From Streptomyces sp. Je 1-79 (lineage in GTDB: Bacteria; Actinomycetota; Actinomycetes; Streptomycetales; Streptomycetaceae): a stretch of 64,000 nucleotides of DNA. The position numbers and the translations under genes were made by a program. The notes under the pieces were generated by a model. That model saw only the letters and a list, made by a program, of their open reading frames with translations. It was not told where the DNA came from and made no database searches. Location: assembly GCF_025195125.1 (NCBI RefSeq), contig NZ_JAMGSL010000007.1, positions 186,001 through 250,000 of the forward strand, given 5' to 3'. Shown in pieces: positions 39,256 to 48,465 of the stretch; within the stretch, counting starts at the first letter, position 1; every line of letters begins with the position of its first letter.

Positions 39256-40065
39256 ATGCCCCGCACCGTCCACCTCGCCGTCTACGACACCCTCGCCGAC
39301 TGGGAGACGGGCCACGCCACCGCCTGGCTCGCCCGGTCCGGTTTCACGGTCACGACCGTCGGCCCCGTCGCCGACAAGCCCGTCACCACCATCGGCGGCA
39401 CGCGGATCGTCCCCGACCTCTCCCTCGAAGACCTCCGGCCCGAGGACAGCGCCCTCCTGATCCTTCCGGGCGGCGACCTCTGGGACACGAGCGACGACCT
39501 CGTCCCGTTCGCCGCCGCCGCCCGCCGTTTCCTCGACGCGGGCGTCCCCGTCGCCGCGATCTGCGGCGCCACGGCGGGGCTGGCCCGGGAGGGCCTCCTC
39601 GACGACCGCGCGCACACGAGCGCCATCTCCTACTACCTCGCCGCCACCGGCTACCTGGGCGGCGACCACTACGTCGACGCGGACGCGGTCACGGACCGGG
39701 GCGCCGGCGGCGTCGGCGACCTGATCACCGCGGGCCCGACCGAGCCGGTCGCGTTCGCCCGCGAGGTGCTCGGCACGATGGGCGCCTTCAAGGGCTCGAA
39801 GCTGGACGCCTGGTACCGCCTCTTCCACGACTCGGACCCGGCGGCGTACGAGGAGCTCAACGCGGACGACTCGGGCGACGCGGCCGGGTCGGGCTCCGCG
39901 GACGGGTCGGGCTCCGCGGACGGGTCAGGCGCCGCGGACGGGTCAGGCGCCGCGGACGGGTCGGACGACTCGGACGACTCGGACGACTCGGACACGACCG
40001 ACGACTCAGGTACGGGAGGCGCGATGGGCGGCTCGGAGCGTTCTCCGGGTGGCGCGGCGTCGTGA
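39256..40065 (+). CDS. DJ-1/PfpI family protein with Ser/Asp/Gly-rich tail
   Basis: A 269-residue protein. The type-1 glutamine amidotransferase-like fold runs to about residue 210: VHLAVYDTLADWETGHATAW, LLILPGGDLWD, and the nucleophile-elbow cysteine in VAAICGATAGLA. DJ-1/PfpI members include chaperones, glyoxalase III and hydrolases; this subgroup often sits beside MarR genes. The last 60 residues are repeats of GSADGSGAADGS and SDDSDDSDD, not part of the domain. AGGAGG lies nine bases before the ATG. Its TGA overlaps the MarR GTG (GTGA). Confidence 0.88.
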   Translation: MPRTVHLAVYDTLADWETGHATAWLARSGFTVTTVGPVADKPVTTIGGTRIVPDLSLEDLRPEDSALLILPGGDLWDTSDDLVPFAAAARRFLDAGVPVAAICGATAGLAREGLLDDRAHTSAISYYLAATGYLGGDHYVDADAVTDRGAGGVGDLITAGPTEPVAFAREVLGTMGAFKGSKLDAWYRLFHDSDPAAYEELNADDSGDAAGSGSADGSGSADGSGAADGSGAADGSDDSDDSDDSDTTDDSGTGGAMGGSERSPGGAAS

Positions 40066-41069: not shown

Positions 41070-41110
41070 GACGGCGGGCCCACGGAGTCAGTCCCCGTGG
41101 GCCCGCCGTC
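41070..41110 (-). terminator. Hairpin terminator of the chitinase gene
   Basis: A perfect 16-bp inverted repeat (41070-41085 with 41095-41110) with a 9-base loop lies downstream of the chitinase stop, directly followed upstream by the 18-bp repeats. Confidence 0.85.
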
Positions 41111-41164
41111 CGGATCGTGTCCGCAGGCCGGATCGTGTCCGCAGGCCGGATCGTGTCCGCAGGC
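41111..41164. repeat. Three perfect 18-bp tandem repeats
   Basis: CGGATCGTGTCCGCAGGC occurs at 41111-41128, 41129-41146 and 41147-41164 without mismatch, between the chitinase stop (41187) and its terminator hairpin. Confidence 0.9.
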
Positions 41165-41186
41165 CGGCGGTGCGGCACCGACAGAA

Positions 41187-42071
41187 CTAGCAGTACAGGT
41201 TCGCACCCGTCGGTACGCCGAGGATCTGGGCGAACTGCTGGTACTTGGTCACCCGGCTCTGGACCTGGGCCGGGTTCCTGCCGTCGCACTCCAGCGAACC
41301 GTTGATCGAACGGATCGTCTGACCGAAGCCGGCACCGTTGACCATGGCGTTGTGGCCGGTCATCGTGCCCGGGCCGTTCTGGGTGTTCCAGTACCAGAGG
41401 CCGGTCTTCCAGGCGACGGCCGACTCGCGCTCGACGCGCCAGGGGTCGTTCAGGAGGTTGATGCCGAGGGCGTCACCCGCGGCCTTGTAGTTGAAGTTCC
41501 AGGAGAGCTGGATCGGACCGCGTCCGTAGTACGCGGCCTGGCCGGCGGGGCAGCCGTAGGGCTGGCCGCTGTCGCAGTAGTGGGGGTAGTTGGCGGTGTT
41601 CTGCTCCACGATGTGGACCAGGCCGCCGGTCTCGTGGTGGACGTTGGCGAGGAAGGCGGCGGCCTCCTGCTTCTTCACGGTGTCGCCACCGGTGTTGGCG
41701 AAGGCGGGGTAGGCGCTGAGGGCCGCCGTGAGGCCGCTGTACGTATAGAAGGAGTTCCGGCCCGGGAACATCTGGTTGAACTGGGCCTCGGAAACGACGA
41801 ATCCGGACGTGGGCGGCGGGGTCGTGCCGCCACCGCAGGCGCCCTCGTGGCGCCAGACGTCCGAGGTGCCGGGGCGCTCGTTCTGGGTCCACCACTTGGC
41901 GTACCAGTTGTGGCCGTTGAACGAGGCGGTCATGCCGCCGGTGTAGACGCTGGAGGAGTTCCAGGCGCCCACGCAGGCGGGTGCCGCACCGGCCGTCGCG
42001 GCGGGAAGGAAGACGGCCAGTCCGACGGCCGTACAGAGTGCGGACATGAGTATGAGCAGACGTCGCAACAT
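41187..42071 (-). CDS. Secreted family 19 chitinase with chitin-binding domain
   Basis: A 294-residue exported enzyme. The signal peptide has basic MLRR, a hydrophobic core and cleavage near ATAGAA (residue 30). Residues 33-79 form a CBM5/12 chitin-binding domain with paired tryptophans (NWYAKWWTQNERP). A short Thr/Pro linker leads to the GH19 domain: catalytic glutamates E147 in NVHHETGG and E156 in HIVE, and the signature AYYGRGPIQLSWNFNY. It cleaves chitin endo-wise with inversion. Upstream lie chitinase-type direct repeats around a TTGACA box, so induction by chitin and control by N-acetylglucosamine signalling is expected. Confidence 0.95.
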   Translation of the reverse strand: MLRRLLILMSALCTAVGLAVFLPAATAGAAPACVGAWNSSSVYTGGMTASFNGHNWYAKWWTQNERPGTSDVWRHEGACGGGTTPPPTSGFVVSEAQFNQMFPGRNSFYTYSGLTAALSAYPAFANTGGDTVKKQEAAAFLANVHHETGGLVHIVEQNTANYPHYCDSGQPYGCPAGQAAYYGRGPIQLSWNFNYKAAGDALGINLLNDPWRVERESAVAWKTGLWYWNTQNGPGTMTGHNAMVNGAGFGQTIRSINGSLECDGRNPAQVQSRVTKYQQFAQILGVPTGANLYC

Positions 42072-42832: not shown

Positions 42833-43840
42833 ATGCCCATGATCAAGGTCCTCGACTCGACCATGTATTACGAGGATTCGGCTTACGAGGAGTCGGCTTA
42901 CGAGGAGTCGGCCTACGAGCAGTCGAGCTACGAACGGTCGAGTCACGAACGGTCGGGTCACGAGCAGTCGGCTGCCGCCGTGCCCACGGACGCGGCGCCG
43001 CTCGTCTTCCTGCACGGCAACCCCACCTCCTCCCACCTGTGGCGGCACGTCCTCCCGGCTGTCGGAGGCGGACGGCGGCTCCTCGCCCCGGACCTGATCG
43101 GCATGGGGCGATCGGGCAAGCCGGACATCGCCTACACGTACGCGGACCAGGCGCGGTATCTCGACGCCTGGTTCGAGGGGCTCGGGATCGAGGAGGCCGT
43201 CCTGATAGGGACGGACTGGGGCGGTTCGCTCGCCTTCGACCGGGCCGCACGGCACCCGGAGGGGGTGCGGGGCGTGGCCTTCATGGAGACGATCCTGCGA
43301 CCGATGAGCTGGGAGGAGTTCCCGGAAGGCGCGCGGGAGCAGTTCCGGTCGTTCAAGTCCCCCGGGGTGGGAGAGGAGTTGGTCCTGGAGCGGAACGCCT
43401 TCGTCGAGGACTCCTTCGCCCAGACGGTCCTCACCGGCCTGAGCGAGGCGGATCACGAGGTCTACCGCGCGCCGTACCCGACGCCCGAGTCCAGGCGGCC
43501 GATGCTCCAGTGGCCGCGCTCGATGCCGCTGGACGGGGAGCCGGCCGAGGTCGTCGCCCGGATCGAGGCGTACGACGCGTGGCTGGCGGACAGCCCGGAC
43601 GTGCCGAAGCTGCTGCTGACCTTCGAGGGGTCGCCGACCCTGATGATCGACCCGGCCATGGCGGCCTGGTGCGAGGCGCACATATCCGCGCTGGAGACGG
43701 CCCACTGCGGCCCCGCCGGCCACCAGGCGCCGGAGGACCGCCCCGAGGAGATAGCCGCGGCGATCACCGCCTGGGCGGACCGCCACGGCCTGGGCCTCCG
43801 GCCCTCCGGCGGCCGGGAGAGCCTGCCGTCGGCAGCCTGA
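42833..43840 (+). CDS. Haloalkane dehalogenase-like alpha/beta hydrolase with repeat insertion
   Basis: A 335-residue enzyme whose core closely follows Rhodococcus DhaA (HLD-II). The expected active site is complete: oxyanion Asn63 in HGNPTSS, nucleophile Asp128 and Trp129 in GTDWGG, acid Glu152 in FMETILRP and base His297 in AGHQAPED, with APDLIGMGRSGKPD conserved. It should hydrolyse carbon-halogen bonds. Between the first two strands, residues 14-48 are a seven-unit five-residue repeat (EESAYEESAYEQSSYERS), absent from known dehalogenases. It is divergent from a MarR gene with repeated operators in between. Confidence 0.85.
   Translation: MPMIKVLDSTMYYEDSAYEESAYEESAYEQSSYERSSHERSGHEQSAAAVPTDAAPLVFLHGNPTSSHLWRHVLPAVGGGRRLLAPDLIGMGRSGKPDIAYTYADQARYLDAWFEGLGIEEAVLIGTDWGGSLAFDRAARHPEGVRGVAFMETILRPMSWEEFPEGAREQFRSFKSPGVGEELVLERNAFVEDSFAQTVLTGLSEADHEVYRAPYPTPESRRPMLQWPRSMPLDGEPAEVVARIEAYDAWLADSPDVPKLLLTFEGSPTLMIDPAMAAWCEAHISALETAHCGPAGHQAPEDRPEEIAAAITAWADRHGLGLRPSGGRESLPSAA
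42872..42976 (+). repeat. Seven-copy 15-bp coding repeat
   Basis: Units of GAGNAGTCGGCYTAC start every 15 bases from 42872. They encode the Glu/Ser/Tyr-His repeat inside the dehalogenase-like protein and stay in frame. Confidence 0.9.
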
Positions 43841-44815: not shown

Positions 44816-45031
44816 GGGGTTCCTCTCCGACGAGCCCCCTCGTGGCCATTACACCCACGGTCCACACCCCCGGCAACCGATACTCCGCCAACCCGTCGCC
44901 ACCCGTCGCCGCCCCGTACGCGACCGAACGGGTCGCCACCGAACGGGTCGCGACTGAACGAAGGGAGAACTCCTGGTGGCGAGAAGCAACCTTCCCCACG
45001 GAACCGCACACACGTCCGTACCGTCTCGCTC

Positions 45032-46555
45032 GTGGACTGGGTTACCGCAGAGAACGTCATCGCCGTGGTCACCGCGCTCCTCGGTGTGCTCGTCTCCGCC
45101 GGTGTCGTCGCGTACGAGCGCTCCATGCAGCGGGGCCGGCGGCTCGGATACCGCGTGCAGCTGAACACCCCGCTGCACGTGGCGGACGAGTCCGTGGGCG
45201 ACCTGACCCTGCGCGACGGCGACATCGGTGATGCCAACGGTTCCACCCTCGTCCTGCTCCGGATCGAGAACGACGGCCTTCGCGAGATCAACCACGGGGA
45301 CTACGCGCAGTCGAGCGAGCCCGAGGGGCTGAAGATCACCTTCGGCGGCCGGACGGTCCAGGCCGTCGTCGCCACCATCCCTCGGGCGTTCGAGCCGGTG
45401 CGCAACGACATGGCGGCCGGGCCGGGGCTGCGCAAGGACGGGGAGGCCGTCCTGATGCCCAAGGTGGCGCTGGAGCGCACGCAGTACTTCAAGCTGCTCG
45501 TACTGCTCTCCGGCGGCGTGACCGAGCGCGCGATCCGGATCACCGGCACCCGGGACGTGGTGGACATCCACCGCAACGAGAGCATGAGCGTCGACGACAA
45601 GGCGCCGACGTTCAGCCCCGCGGCCCGGAACATCACCCTCGTCCTCGCCGCATGCGTGGTCACCCTCGCGACGATCATCGTCCGCAGCGAGACGCCGCCG
45701 CCCATCGGCTGCGCCCGGGGCACGCTCACGGTGACCGGCTCCACGGCGTTCGCCCCGGCGGTGCGCGAGCTGGCGCGGAAGTACGAGAAGGACTGCGAGG
45801 GGTCCACCGTCGTGGTCGACGCGCACGGCTCGACGGCGGGGATACGGGAGCTGGCCGCGGCCGGCGCCGCCGCAGGCAAGGGCTCCCCGGCGGTCGTCGC
45901 GCTCTCCGACGGACGCAAGCCCGGCGGCTACCCGCAGCTGCGGGAGAGCATGGTGGCCGTCTCCCTCTTCACCCTCGTCGTCAACGACGGGATACCGGTC
46001 ACCAGTCTCACCCTGGATCAGGTCCGCCGCCTCTACCAGGGCCGGATCACCAACTGGAAGGAGATACCCGGCGGCCCGGACAGACCGGTGCGCCTGGTCA
46101 GCAGGGACGCCAACTCCGGTACGCGTGAGGTCTTCCAGCGCCGCGTCCTCGGCCGTAACGAGCCCGCGAACTCCTCACGGGACTGCGAGCACCGGGACGA
46201 CCTGGAGGCCCCTGTGCTGCGCTGCGAACTCGACAGCACGGAGCAGGTGCTGTCCACGGTCGCCAAGCTGCCGGGGGCCGTCGGCTACACCGAACTCCGT
46301 GCCGCGAGCGGGCTGAAGGGGCTGCGCCGGGTGGCGATCGACGGCCGGACGGCGAACGTGGACGAGATAGGCGAGTCGACCTACCCGTACCGGGAGATCG
46401 AGTACGCCTACACCTGGGGCGAGCCCCCGGCCGACTCGCTGACCTCCAGTTTTCTCACCTATCTGAGCCGGGGCAGCGGCCAGGACGTCATCCGTACCCA
46501 CGGGCACCTGCCGTGCGCGACCCCCAAGGGACTGCGGATCTGCGGCGAAGGATGA
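45032..46555 (+). CDS. Membrane-anchored PstS-like substrate-binding protein
   Basis: About 507 residues from GTG 45032 (VDWVTAENVIAVV); the start has no clear ribosome site. One helix at residues 4-26 is followed by basic ERSMQRGRRLGYRVQL, so the segment to about residue 198 should be cytosolic. A second helix (ITLVLAACVVTLATIIV) leads to an external type-2 periplasmic binding domain with phosphate-binding-like motifs GTLTVTGSTAFAPAVRELA, LYQGRITNWKEIPGG and SRDANSGTREVF. No transporter genes are adjacent. Its stop overlaps the start of a Ser/Thr kinase gene (ATGA), implying a sensor role. Confidence 0.8.
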   Translation: MDWVTAENVIAVVTALLGVLVSAGVVAYERSMQRGRRLGYRVQLNTPLHVADESVGDLTLRDGDIGDANGSTLVLLRIENDGLREINHGDYAQSSEPEGLKITFGGRTVQAVVATIPRAFEPVRNDMAAGPGLRKDGEAVLMPKVALERTQYFKLLVLLSGGVTERAIRITGTRDVVDIHRNESMSVDDKAPTFSPAARNITLVLAACVVTLATIIVRSETPPPIGCARGTLTVTGSTAFAPAVRELARKYEKDCEGSTVVVDAHGSTAGIRELAAAGAAAGKGSPAVVALSDGRKPGGYPQLRESMVAVSLFTLVVNDGIPVTSLTLDQVRRLYQGRITNWKEIPGGPDRPVRLVSRDANSGTREVFQRRVLGRNEPANSSRDCEHRDDLEAPVLRCELDSTEQVLSTVAKLPGAVGYTELRAASGLKGLRRVAIDGRTANVDEIGESTYPYREIEYAYTWGEPPADSLTSSFLTYLSRGSGQDVIRTHGHLPCATPKGLRICGEG

Positions 46556-48465
46556 CGCCACGCCGACCAGGGCGTCTGGCATTCTCTAGCGACGTGGAGC
46601 CATTGAACCCGGAAGACCCGGTCAGCATCGGCCCGTTCCGTCTGCTCGGACGGCTGGGCGCCGGCGGCATGGGCCGGGTGTTCCTGGCCCGTTCGGCCGG
46701 TGGGCGGACGGTGGCGGTGAAGGTCGTGCACACGGAGCTCGCGGCGCAGGACGAGTTCCGTCGCCGGTTCGCCCGTGAGGTCGCCTCGCTGGAGCGCGTC
46801 GGTGGCACGGGCACGGCGCCGGTCCTCGGTTCGGACACGGCGGCCGAGGCGCCCTGGGTGGCCGTCGGTTATGTTCCGGGGCCGTCGCTGCGGATCGTGG
46901 TGGGCGACGAGTTCGGGCCGCTACCGGCCGTGACGGTACGGACCCTCGCCTCCGGGCTCGCCCGGGCGCTCACCCATGTGCACGCCGCCGGGCTGGTCCA
47001 CCGCGATCTGAAGCCGTCCAACGTCCTGCTCACCTTCGACGGCCCGCGGATCATCGACTTCGGCATCGCCCGCGCCGTCGAGACGATCACCGACGGCGGA
47101 CTGACCAGCACCGGCGCGGTGGTCGGCTCGCCCGGCTTCATGTCCCCCGAGCAGGTGCGCGGCGAGAAGCTGACCCCGGCCTCGGACATCTTCTGCCTCG
47201 GGGCGGTCCTCGTCTACGCGGCGACGGGCCACTCCCCGTTCGGTACGGCGGACAGCGGTGTCCACGCCACGATGTTCCGCATCGCCCACGACGAGCCCGA
47301 TCTGACGGACCTTCCGGCCGAACTGGCGGGTCTGGTCCGGGCCTGCCTCGCCAAGGACCCGGCCGCCCGGCCGTCGGCCGCCGAGCTGGTGGAGACGATC
47401 ACGGTCGCCGATCCCTGGCTGCCGGCGGAGGTGCTGGCCCGCCTCGGCAGGCACGCCGCGCGGGTCCTGGAGGCGGAGGCCACCACCGCCGGCGGCTCGG
47501 GCGCTACGGGCGGTACGGCCGGTGCGAGGGCCGACGACCCCACGCCCCCGCCGGCCCCGAAGGCGCCCGAGCGGCGGCGCGGCGCACTGGTCGCCGTCGC
47601 GACGGCCCTCGTCGTCGCCGCGGCGGCCACGCTCACGTACGTCTTCTGGCCGGACCCGACCAAGGGCCTCGACGATCAGAAGAACCGTGCGCGCGGGCAG
47701 ACCGGTGACGTGTCCGCCCGGCCGTCGGGGATCGTGCCGGCCGCGTTCCTCGGCGCCTGGGAGGGCGTCCAGCGCGGCTCGGCCGACCACCCCAGGGAGA
47801 CGAGCCGGATCGAGATCGGCCAGGGGGCGGCGGGCGCCAAGGCCGCCGTCTACGTCCAGGTGAGCGAGGAGCGGCTGTGCATGGGCCGTTCGCGGCTCGT
47901 CTCCGCCGACGAGGACAAGGTGGTCCTCGGCGAGTCCGACGTCACCACGAGCGTCCCCGCCCAGCGCTGCACGCCCGCCGCCCACCAGACCCTCACCCTG
48001 CGCTCCCCCGACGTCCTGGAGTGGACCTCGGGAGCCGCGAAGACCACCTTCCGCAAGGCCCGGACCGGCACGAACATCGTGCCGACGCAGTTGGTCGGGC
48101 GGTGGAAGATGGAGAACGACCGGCTGATCTACGGCGACAACGCCGAGCGCTACAGCGACGAGGTGACCATCACCCAGGGCCCCGTCGGCGCCACGGTCTA
48201 CCGCCGTGTGCACGTCTACCCACGCCTCGACGACGAGGGCAACCCGAGGCCGGACTCGGTCAGTTGCACCTTCACGGCGATCCTCGCCGGCTCCGGGACG
48301 CCCCTGGTCGTCGGCCCGGGCACCACGGACCCGGACGCCTCGGACCGCGACTGCGAGCGGGCCGGGTACGCCGGCTACCTGACGATCGACCGCTTCAAGG
48401 GCCGTGAGCGCCTGCTGGTCTTCCCGATGCTGGACGGGGAGCCGGGCGAGTACTACCGCGGCTAG
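46552..48465 (+). CDS. Ser/Thr protein kinase with duplicated external domain
   Basis: A 637-residue Hanks-type receptor kinase. The start is ATG 46552 (coupled) or GTG 46594 (VEPLNPEDPVSIGPFRLLG). Kinase motifs are LGAGGMGRVFLA, VAVKVV (Lys), HRDLKPSN, IIDFGIARA and MSPEQVRG. A Pro/Ala linker precedes one helix (LVAVATALVVAAAATLTYVF, about residue 350). Outside are two similar beta-rich domains: FLGAWEGVQRG with SRIEIGQGAAGAKAAVYVQV, and LVGRWKMENDRL with DEVTITQGPVGATVYRRVHV. Both contain a cysteine pair. The upstream coupled gene encodes a PstS-like protein, its likely partner. Confidence 0.88.
   Translation: MTPRRPGRLAFSSDVEPLNPEDPVSIGPFRLLGRLGAGGMGRVFLARSAGGRTVAVKVVHTELAAQDEFRRRFAREVASLERVGGTGTAPVLGSDTAAEAPWVAVGYVPGPSLRIVVGDEFGPLPAVTVRTLASGLARALTHVHAAGLVHRDLKPSNVLLTFDGPRIIDFGIARAVETITDGGLTSTGAVVGSPGFMSPEQVRGEKLTPASDIFCLGAVLVYAATGHSPFGTADSGVHATMFRIAHDEPDLTDLPAELAGLVRACLAKDPAARPSAAELVETITVADPWLPAEVLARLGRHAARVLEAEATTAGGSGATGGTAGARADDPTPPPAPKAPERRRGALVAVATALVVAAAATLTYVFWPDPTKGLDDQKNRARGQTGDVSARPSGIVPAAFLGAWEGVQRGSADHPRETSRIEIGQGAAGAKAAVYVQVSEERLCMGRSRLVSADEDKVVLGESDVTTSVPAQRCTPAAHQTLTLRSPDVLEWTSGAAKTTFRKARTGTNIVPTQLVGRWKMENDRLIYGDNAERYSDEVTITQGPVGATVYRRVHVYPRLDDEGNPRPDSVSCTFTAILAGSGTPLVVGPGTTDPDASDRDCERAGYAGYLTIDRFKGRERLLVFPMLDGEPGEYYRG

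What the first reader, a model, noticed from the sequence alone, without database searches (positions are those of the whole stretch)
45032..48465. Binding-protein/kinase module: PstS-like sensor coupled to a receptor kinase
A two-helix protein with an external phosphate-binding-like domain and a cytosolic domain overlaps by ATGA the gene of a Ser/Thr receptor kinase with two external beta-rich domains. There is no transporter nearby. The arrangement suggests a ligand sensor that hands a signal to a kinase rather than a transport system. I do not recall this pairing being characterised.
Basis: inference. Interest (0 to 1): 0.6.

Follow-up and report, generated by a model that had tools for sequence, protein, structure and literature searches.

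The report
Membrane phosphate-binding receptor beside receptor kinase
A Streptomyces gene pair encodes a membrane-tethered protein with an intact phosphate-binding pocket next to a Ser/Thr receptor kinase; the two genes sit together more often than chance but not always, so the first protein is probably a phosphate sensor that may, unproven, feed the kinase.

Summary
Both genes are real. The first (45032-46555) encodes TM, cytosolic beta domain, TM, then an external PstS-type domain. It keeps every E. coli PstS phosphate-contact residue I could align except F11. The second (46594-48465) is an AfsK-like Ser/Thr kinase with one TM and two external beta barrels. The claimed ATGA overlap is wrong: the kinase starts at a GTG conserved in relatives, preceded by its own conserved promoter-like motif. 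The genome has a separate pstSCA operon, so a Pst role is unlikely. In a sample not selected for adjacency, 44 of 64 genes of this subfamily have a same-strand kinase next door, in opposite orders and with different kinase lineages. Twenty do not, 14 of 14 distant paralogs do not, and orthologous kinases persist where the receptor gene is deleted or absent. A PHO-box-like direct repeat in one fixed orientation recurs upstream of the receptor genes, but not of the kinases. I read this as a phosphate-starvation-linked, membrane-anchored phosphate receptor that became an optional accessory sensor for neighbouring kinases. The kinase link is inferred. Known analogues are GlnH-GlnX-PknG and pstS2-pknD. 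New variant of a known kind.

The parts
44953..44970 (-). PHO-box-like direct repeat GTTCTCC-CTTC-GTTCAGT upstream of the receptor gene
   Evidence: same orientation and similar distance upstream of relatives of every class. Alone it is not significant within the window.
45019..45024 (+). TACCGT, possible -10 box of a leaderless receptor transcript
   Evidence: conserved in most of the relatives printed (the distant locus L028 lacks it at this place); reading it as a promoter is inference
45032..46555 (+). membrane-anchored PstS-like receptor gene, 507 aa
45047..45124 (+). first transmembrane helix (residues 6-31)
   Evidence: sequence and model
45140..45577 (+). cytosolic beta-rich domain (about residues 37-182), no Pfam family
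   Evidence: positive residues after helix 1 place it inside (inference)
45617..45685 (+). second transmembrane helix (residues 196-218)
   Evidence: sequence and model
45707..46513 (+). external PstS-type phosphate-binding domain (residues 226-494), with conserved cysteines
46575..46587 (+). TCTGGCATTCTCT, conserved motif 6 nt before the kinase start; only copy in the genome
46594..48465 (+). Ser/Thr receptor kinase gene, 623 aa, GTG start
46642..47397 (+). kinase domain (residues 17-268) with VAVK, HRDLKPSN and DFG motifs
   Evidence: and sequence
47584..47649 (+). kinase transmembrane helix
   Evidence: sequence
47752..48060 (+). external beta barrel 1 with one invariant cysteine pair
48097..48459 (+). 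external beta barrel 2 with one invariant cysteine pair

Best explanation
The first gene makes a membrane-tethered phosphate receptor, not a transporter subunit. Its external PstS-type domain closes on inorganic phosphate, and the state is passed through the second helix to the cytosolic beta domain. The gene is probably under PhoP-type phosphate-starvation control. In the Streptomyces lineage that keeps it in the recR-purA region it has become an optional accessory sensor of a neighbouring AfsK-like receptor kinase: occupancy changes kinase activity through contact between the external domains, or the kinase reads or phosphorylates the cytosolic domain. Shown here by sequence: domain layout, pocket, conserved neighbourhood, conserved upstream repeat. 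Inferred: phosphate as ligand, direction of signal, Pho control, contact with the kinase.
For: PstS fold by sequence and structure search. Positions equivalent to E. coli PstS T10, S38, D56, R135, S139, G140 and T141 are conserved in the window and 14 diverse family members (residue list from memory, numbering checked). Conserved cysteines in the binding domain and four in the kinase ectodomain fit an external location. A separate pstS-pstC-pstA operon exists. A same-strand kinase is the neighbour in 44 of 64 genes of the subfamily, on either side and from several kinase lineages, including orthologs of the window kinase on opposite sides. Receptor-ectodomain distances covary after removing the neighbour gene's signal (partial r 0.35; weak). 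PHO-box-like repeats: 43 of 133 upstream regions on one strand, 0 on the other, 0 of 2660 shuffles; none enriched before the kinases.
Against: 20 of 64 subfamily members and all 14 distant paralogs have no kinase neighbour, nor do 22 loci of another genus. The kinase survives loss of the receptor. The two genes do not overlap and look separately promoted. The recR-purA region is rich in kinases in some strains, even without the receptor (L097), so part of the adjacency may be local history. The repeat units differ from the S. coelicolor core GTTCACC, usually by one base each. No complex could be modelled.
Confidence: 0.45

Rival explanations
1. Stand-alone phosphate receptor: the protein senses phosphate and signals through its own cytosolic domain to some other partner; the kinase next door is a bystander in a kinase-rich region.
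For: The receptor family is wider than the pairing: 14 distant Streptomyces paralogs and 22 loci of another genus have no adjacent kinase. Receptor genes carry their own conserved upstream repeat and kinases do not. Kinase orthologs persist without the receptor.
Against: Adjacency in 44 of 64 with both gene orders and several kinase lineages is hard to explain by drift alone.
Confidence: 0.33
2. Tethered auxiliary binding protein that feeds phosphate to the PstCAB transporter.
For: Clear PstS homology with an intact pocket. In M. tuberculosis PstS1 and PstS2 are linked to phosphate uptake (PMC7034087).
Against: Two helices and a conserved cytosolic domain are not needed for delivery. pstS-pstC-pstA is present elsewhere with its own PstS and PHO box. 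No permease nearby.
Confidence: 0.12
3. The receptor is a substrate or inhibitor of the kinase rather than its sensor: the kinase, sensing something else through its beta barrels, phosphorylates the cytosolic domain to tune it.
For: The kinase has its own elaborate ectodomain and is kept in strains without the receptor. The cytosolic domain is on the same side of the membrane as the kinase domain.
Against: No phosphosite data; the cytosolic domain is the fastest-changing part (mean distance 0.46).
Confidence: 0.1

Closest known systems
GlnH-GlnX-PknG of mycobacteria and corynebacteria (PMC6069109, PMC9769921)
   Same: A binding protein outside the membrane controls a Ser/Thr kinase, genes clustered, no transport role.
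   Different: Amino-acid ligand; lipoprotein plus separate membrane protein plus soluble kinase in a conserved operon. Here binding domain and membrane relay are one protein and the kinase has its own TM and ectodomain.
pstS2-pknD of M. tuberculosis (PMC3322341, PMC7034087, PMC4393303)
   Same: PstS-type gene directly upstream of a receptor Ser/Thr kinase gene, without an identified permease; PknD is linked to phosphate-poor conditions.
   Different: No sign of orthology here: the window domain is closest to short PstS forms. The PknD sensor is a beta propeller (PMC6213207), here two small barrels. That PstS2 lacks the two-helix and cytosolic-domain architecture is from my own knowledge.
PstS of the PstSCAB transporter
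   Same: Fold and phosphate pocket.
   Different: Anchored by two helices with a cytosolic domain; scores below the TIGR02136 family cut-off (129 versus 206.6 bits); no transporter.
AfsK of Streptomyces
   Same: N-terminal kinase region (288 bits over residues 1-327).
   Different: No matching C-terminal region; far below the equivalog cut-off of 1300 bits.

Membership tests
PstS, phosphate-binding protein fold | PBP_like_2 domain over the family cut-off | tested here: met
   102.9 bits against cut-off 27
PstS, phosphate-binding protein fold | Phosphate-contact residues of E. coli PstS | tested here: met
   T10, S38, D56, R135, S139, G140, T141 equivalents conserved; F11 is A
PstS, transporter subunit | Score over the TIGR02136 PstS family cut-off | tested here: not met
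   129 against 206.6 bits
PstS, transporter subunit | Gene beside pstC and pstA | tested here: not met
   pstS-pstC-pstA on contig C15; this gene on C7
Hanks-type Ser/Thr receptor kinase | Kinase domain with catalytic motifs, one TM, external domain | tested here: met
   motifs read from sequence
AfsK | Full-length match over the NF053615 cut-off | tested here: not met
   288 against 1300 bits, N-terminal part only
PASTA kinase (PknB/Stk1) | External PASTA repeats and family cut-off | tested here: not met
   184 against 450 bits, kinase part only; no Pfam match in the ectodomain
GlnH-GlnX-PknG type system | Binding protein alters kinase activity | not testable with these tools
   needs biochemistry
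GlnH-GlnX-PknG type system | Stable gene cluster across relatives | tested here: not met
   44 of 64 adjacent; kinase found without receptor
Pho regulon | Two 11-nt units with GTTCACC-like cores upstream | tested here: inconclusive
   GTTCGCC-N4-GTTCAAC-like repeats conserved in one orientation; most units one base off the published core; PhoP binding untested

The most novel reading that the evidence does not exclude
A family of single-protein transmembrane phosphate receptors (cytosolic beta domain, TM, external PstS domain), controlled by phosphate starvation, gives Ser/Thr receptor kinases a direct phosphate input in Streptomyces and so links the Pho response to kinase signalling.
Probability: 0.3. 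Interest if true: 0.7.

Novelty: new variant of a known kind. Interest (0 to 1): 0.45.

Why it matters
Ligands of bacterial Ser/Thr receptor kinases are mostly unknown, and phosphate controls antibiotic production in Streptomyces. A receptor with an intact phosphate pocket beside a kinase offers a named ligand and a named kinase to test. The receptor family, its unclassified cytosolic domain and the conserved upstream repeat are testable on their own even if the kinase is only a neighbour.

Tried and rejected
Translational coupling by ATGA: rejected. Transporter subunit: unlikely. Remote relatives of the ectodomain and of the cytosolic domain in solved structures: none convincing; the ectodomain barrels only loosely resemble small designed beta barrels and fatty-acid-binding-type barrels. 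Model of the full receptor: low confidence (pLDDT 59.6), used only for helix and strand positions and as a check of the PstS fold. Kinase-start motif as a regulon signal: only one copy in the genome. A generic PHO pattern in the genome found two sites, one before pstS, the other with no clear target. Literature search for this pairing in Streptomyces: nothing found in the held open-access library.

Full report
What is there. The window lies in a 7.28 Mb Streptomyces-type genome (closest named loci are Streptomyces). The receptor gene at 45032-46555 encodes 507 aa. The C-terminal half is a PstS-type binding domain, preceded by a helix, about 150 residues of beta-rich domain with positive residues after the first helix (cytosolic by the positive-inside rule, inference), and a second helix. 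The kinase gene starts at GTG 46594, not at the ATG 46552 that would give the ATGA overlap. The relatives align at this GTG and many have no upstream in-frame start. The motif TCTGGCATnCTCT, or a close variant, lies 6 nt before it in the relatives whose receptor precedes the kinase, whether the first gene ends 26 or about 240 bp away (L042, L096 and L097 have another upstream sequence). Locus L095, which has lost the receptor gene except for a short C-terminal remnant, keeps the motif. The kinase carries the catalytic motifs and an ectodomain of two small beta barrels without Pfam or clear PDB relatives.

Pocket. The binding domain also has six invariant cysteines in the close family and the kinase ectodomain four, consistent with an external location. 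Phosphate is therefore the best guess for the ligand; it was not measured.

Not a transporter part. Only two PBP_like_2 proteins were found in the genome; the other lies directly before pstC and pstA on another contig and has a canonical PHO box upstream (GTTCACTTTCCGTTCACC).

Neighbourhood. I examined 105 loci with the receptor gene. Among loci drawn without regard to adjacency, 44 of 64 members of the Streptomyces subfamily have a same-strand kinase within 1 kb; 20 do not. With 32 kinase domains over cut-off in the genome and an assumed 6,400 genes, a random gene would have such a neighbour about 0.5% of the time. The loci are related, so this is not a p value. More telling, the receptor stands before the kinase (window type, near purA) in one clade and after it (near recR) in another. 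The kinases belong to different lineages, and orthologs of the window kinase occur on either side (L145 and L042 upstream). Against this, the kinase ortholog occurs without the receptor in L095, L096 and L097, and with a gutted receptor in L079; of eight kinases in a 61-genome sample with an ectodomain at least 50% identical to the window's, four have the intact receptor beside them. Some strains hold several kinases in this region without the receptor (L097). All 14 distant paralogs and 22 loci of another genus of the class, where the gene sits near rnc and mutM in the loci read, have no kinase neighbour. The receptor is thus the wider family and the kinase pairing a specialisation of one lineage. 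Among 27 window-type loci, receptor and ectodomain distances correlate beyond what the adjacent qor gene explains (partial r 0.35); I treat this as weak.

Regulation. Upstream of receptor genes of all classes a direct repeat of the form GTTCGCC-N4-GTTCAAC recurs, mostly 50-120 bp before the start and in one orientation: 43 of 133 upstream regions pass a threshold on that strand, none on the other strand, none of 2660 shuffles. The threshold was chosen after seeing the data and the loci are related. The published S. coelicolor core is GTTCACC in 11-nt units (PMC4415409). The units here usually differ by one base, so Pho control is a lead, and its sign (activation or repression) is open. The region before the kinases shows no enrichment. 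The window's own site (44953-44970) is not significant alone.

Mechanism and comparison. The most economical reading is a membrane-anchored phosphate receptor, optionally wired to the neighbouring kinase. The logic is known: GlnH-GlnX-PknG lets a binding protein control a kinase (PMC6069109, PMC9769921), and pstS2-pknD of M. tuberculosis has the same gene order, with PknD needed for detectable malate dehydrogenase phosphorylation in phosphate-poor medium (PMC3322341, PMC4393303). What differs is the one-protein receptor with its own cytosolic domain, the different kinase ectodomain and the facultative linkage. No paper on this Streptomyces pair was found in the open-access library searched; subscription journals are not covered.

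Noticed in passing
window 46575-46587: TCTGGCATnCTCT directly before the kinase start is strongly conserved across the clade yet unique in the genome; its function is unknown.
   Followed up: partly
L079:3962-6283 (minus strand): Internal deletion of the receptor gene leaves remnants read in one 773-aa frame with the kinase; the frame start may be an artefact of my simple gene caller.
   Followed up: no
L164, L165, L184-L203: In another genus of the class the receptor gene lies, in the loci read in full, near rnc, mutM, a RibD-like reductase and a PHP-domain protein, with no kinase.
   Followed up: partly
L078:4705-5826, L084:4545-5579: The cytosolic domain occurs without the PstS domain: followed by other transmembrane helices (L078), or joined to an unrelated C-terminal half (L084).
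   Followed up: no
window 39850-40065, 41100-41190, 42850-42940, 44918-44955: Several short tandem duplications, in frame within ORFs (SADGSG, IRPADT, YEESAYEES) or upstream of the receptor, cluster in this part of the window.
   Followed up: no
L026: A locus labelled Microtetraspora glauca carries a typical Streptomyces version with purA 96% identical to the window's; possibly a mislabelled genome or a recent transfer.
   Followed up: no
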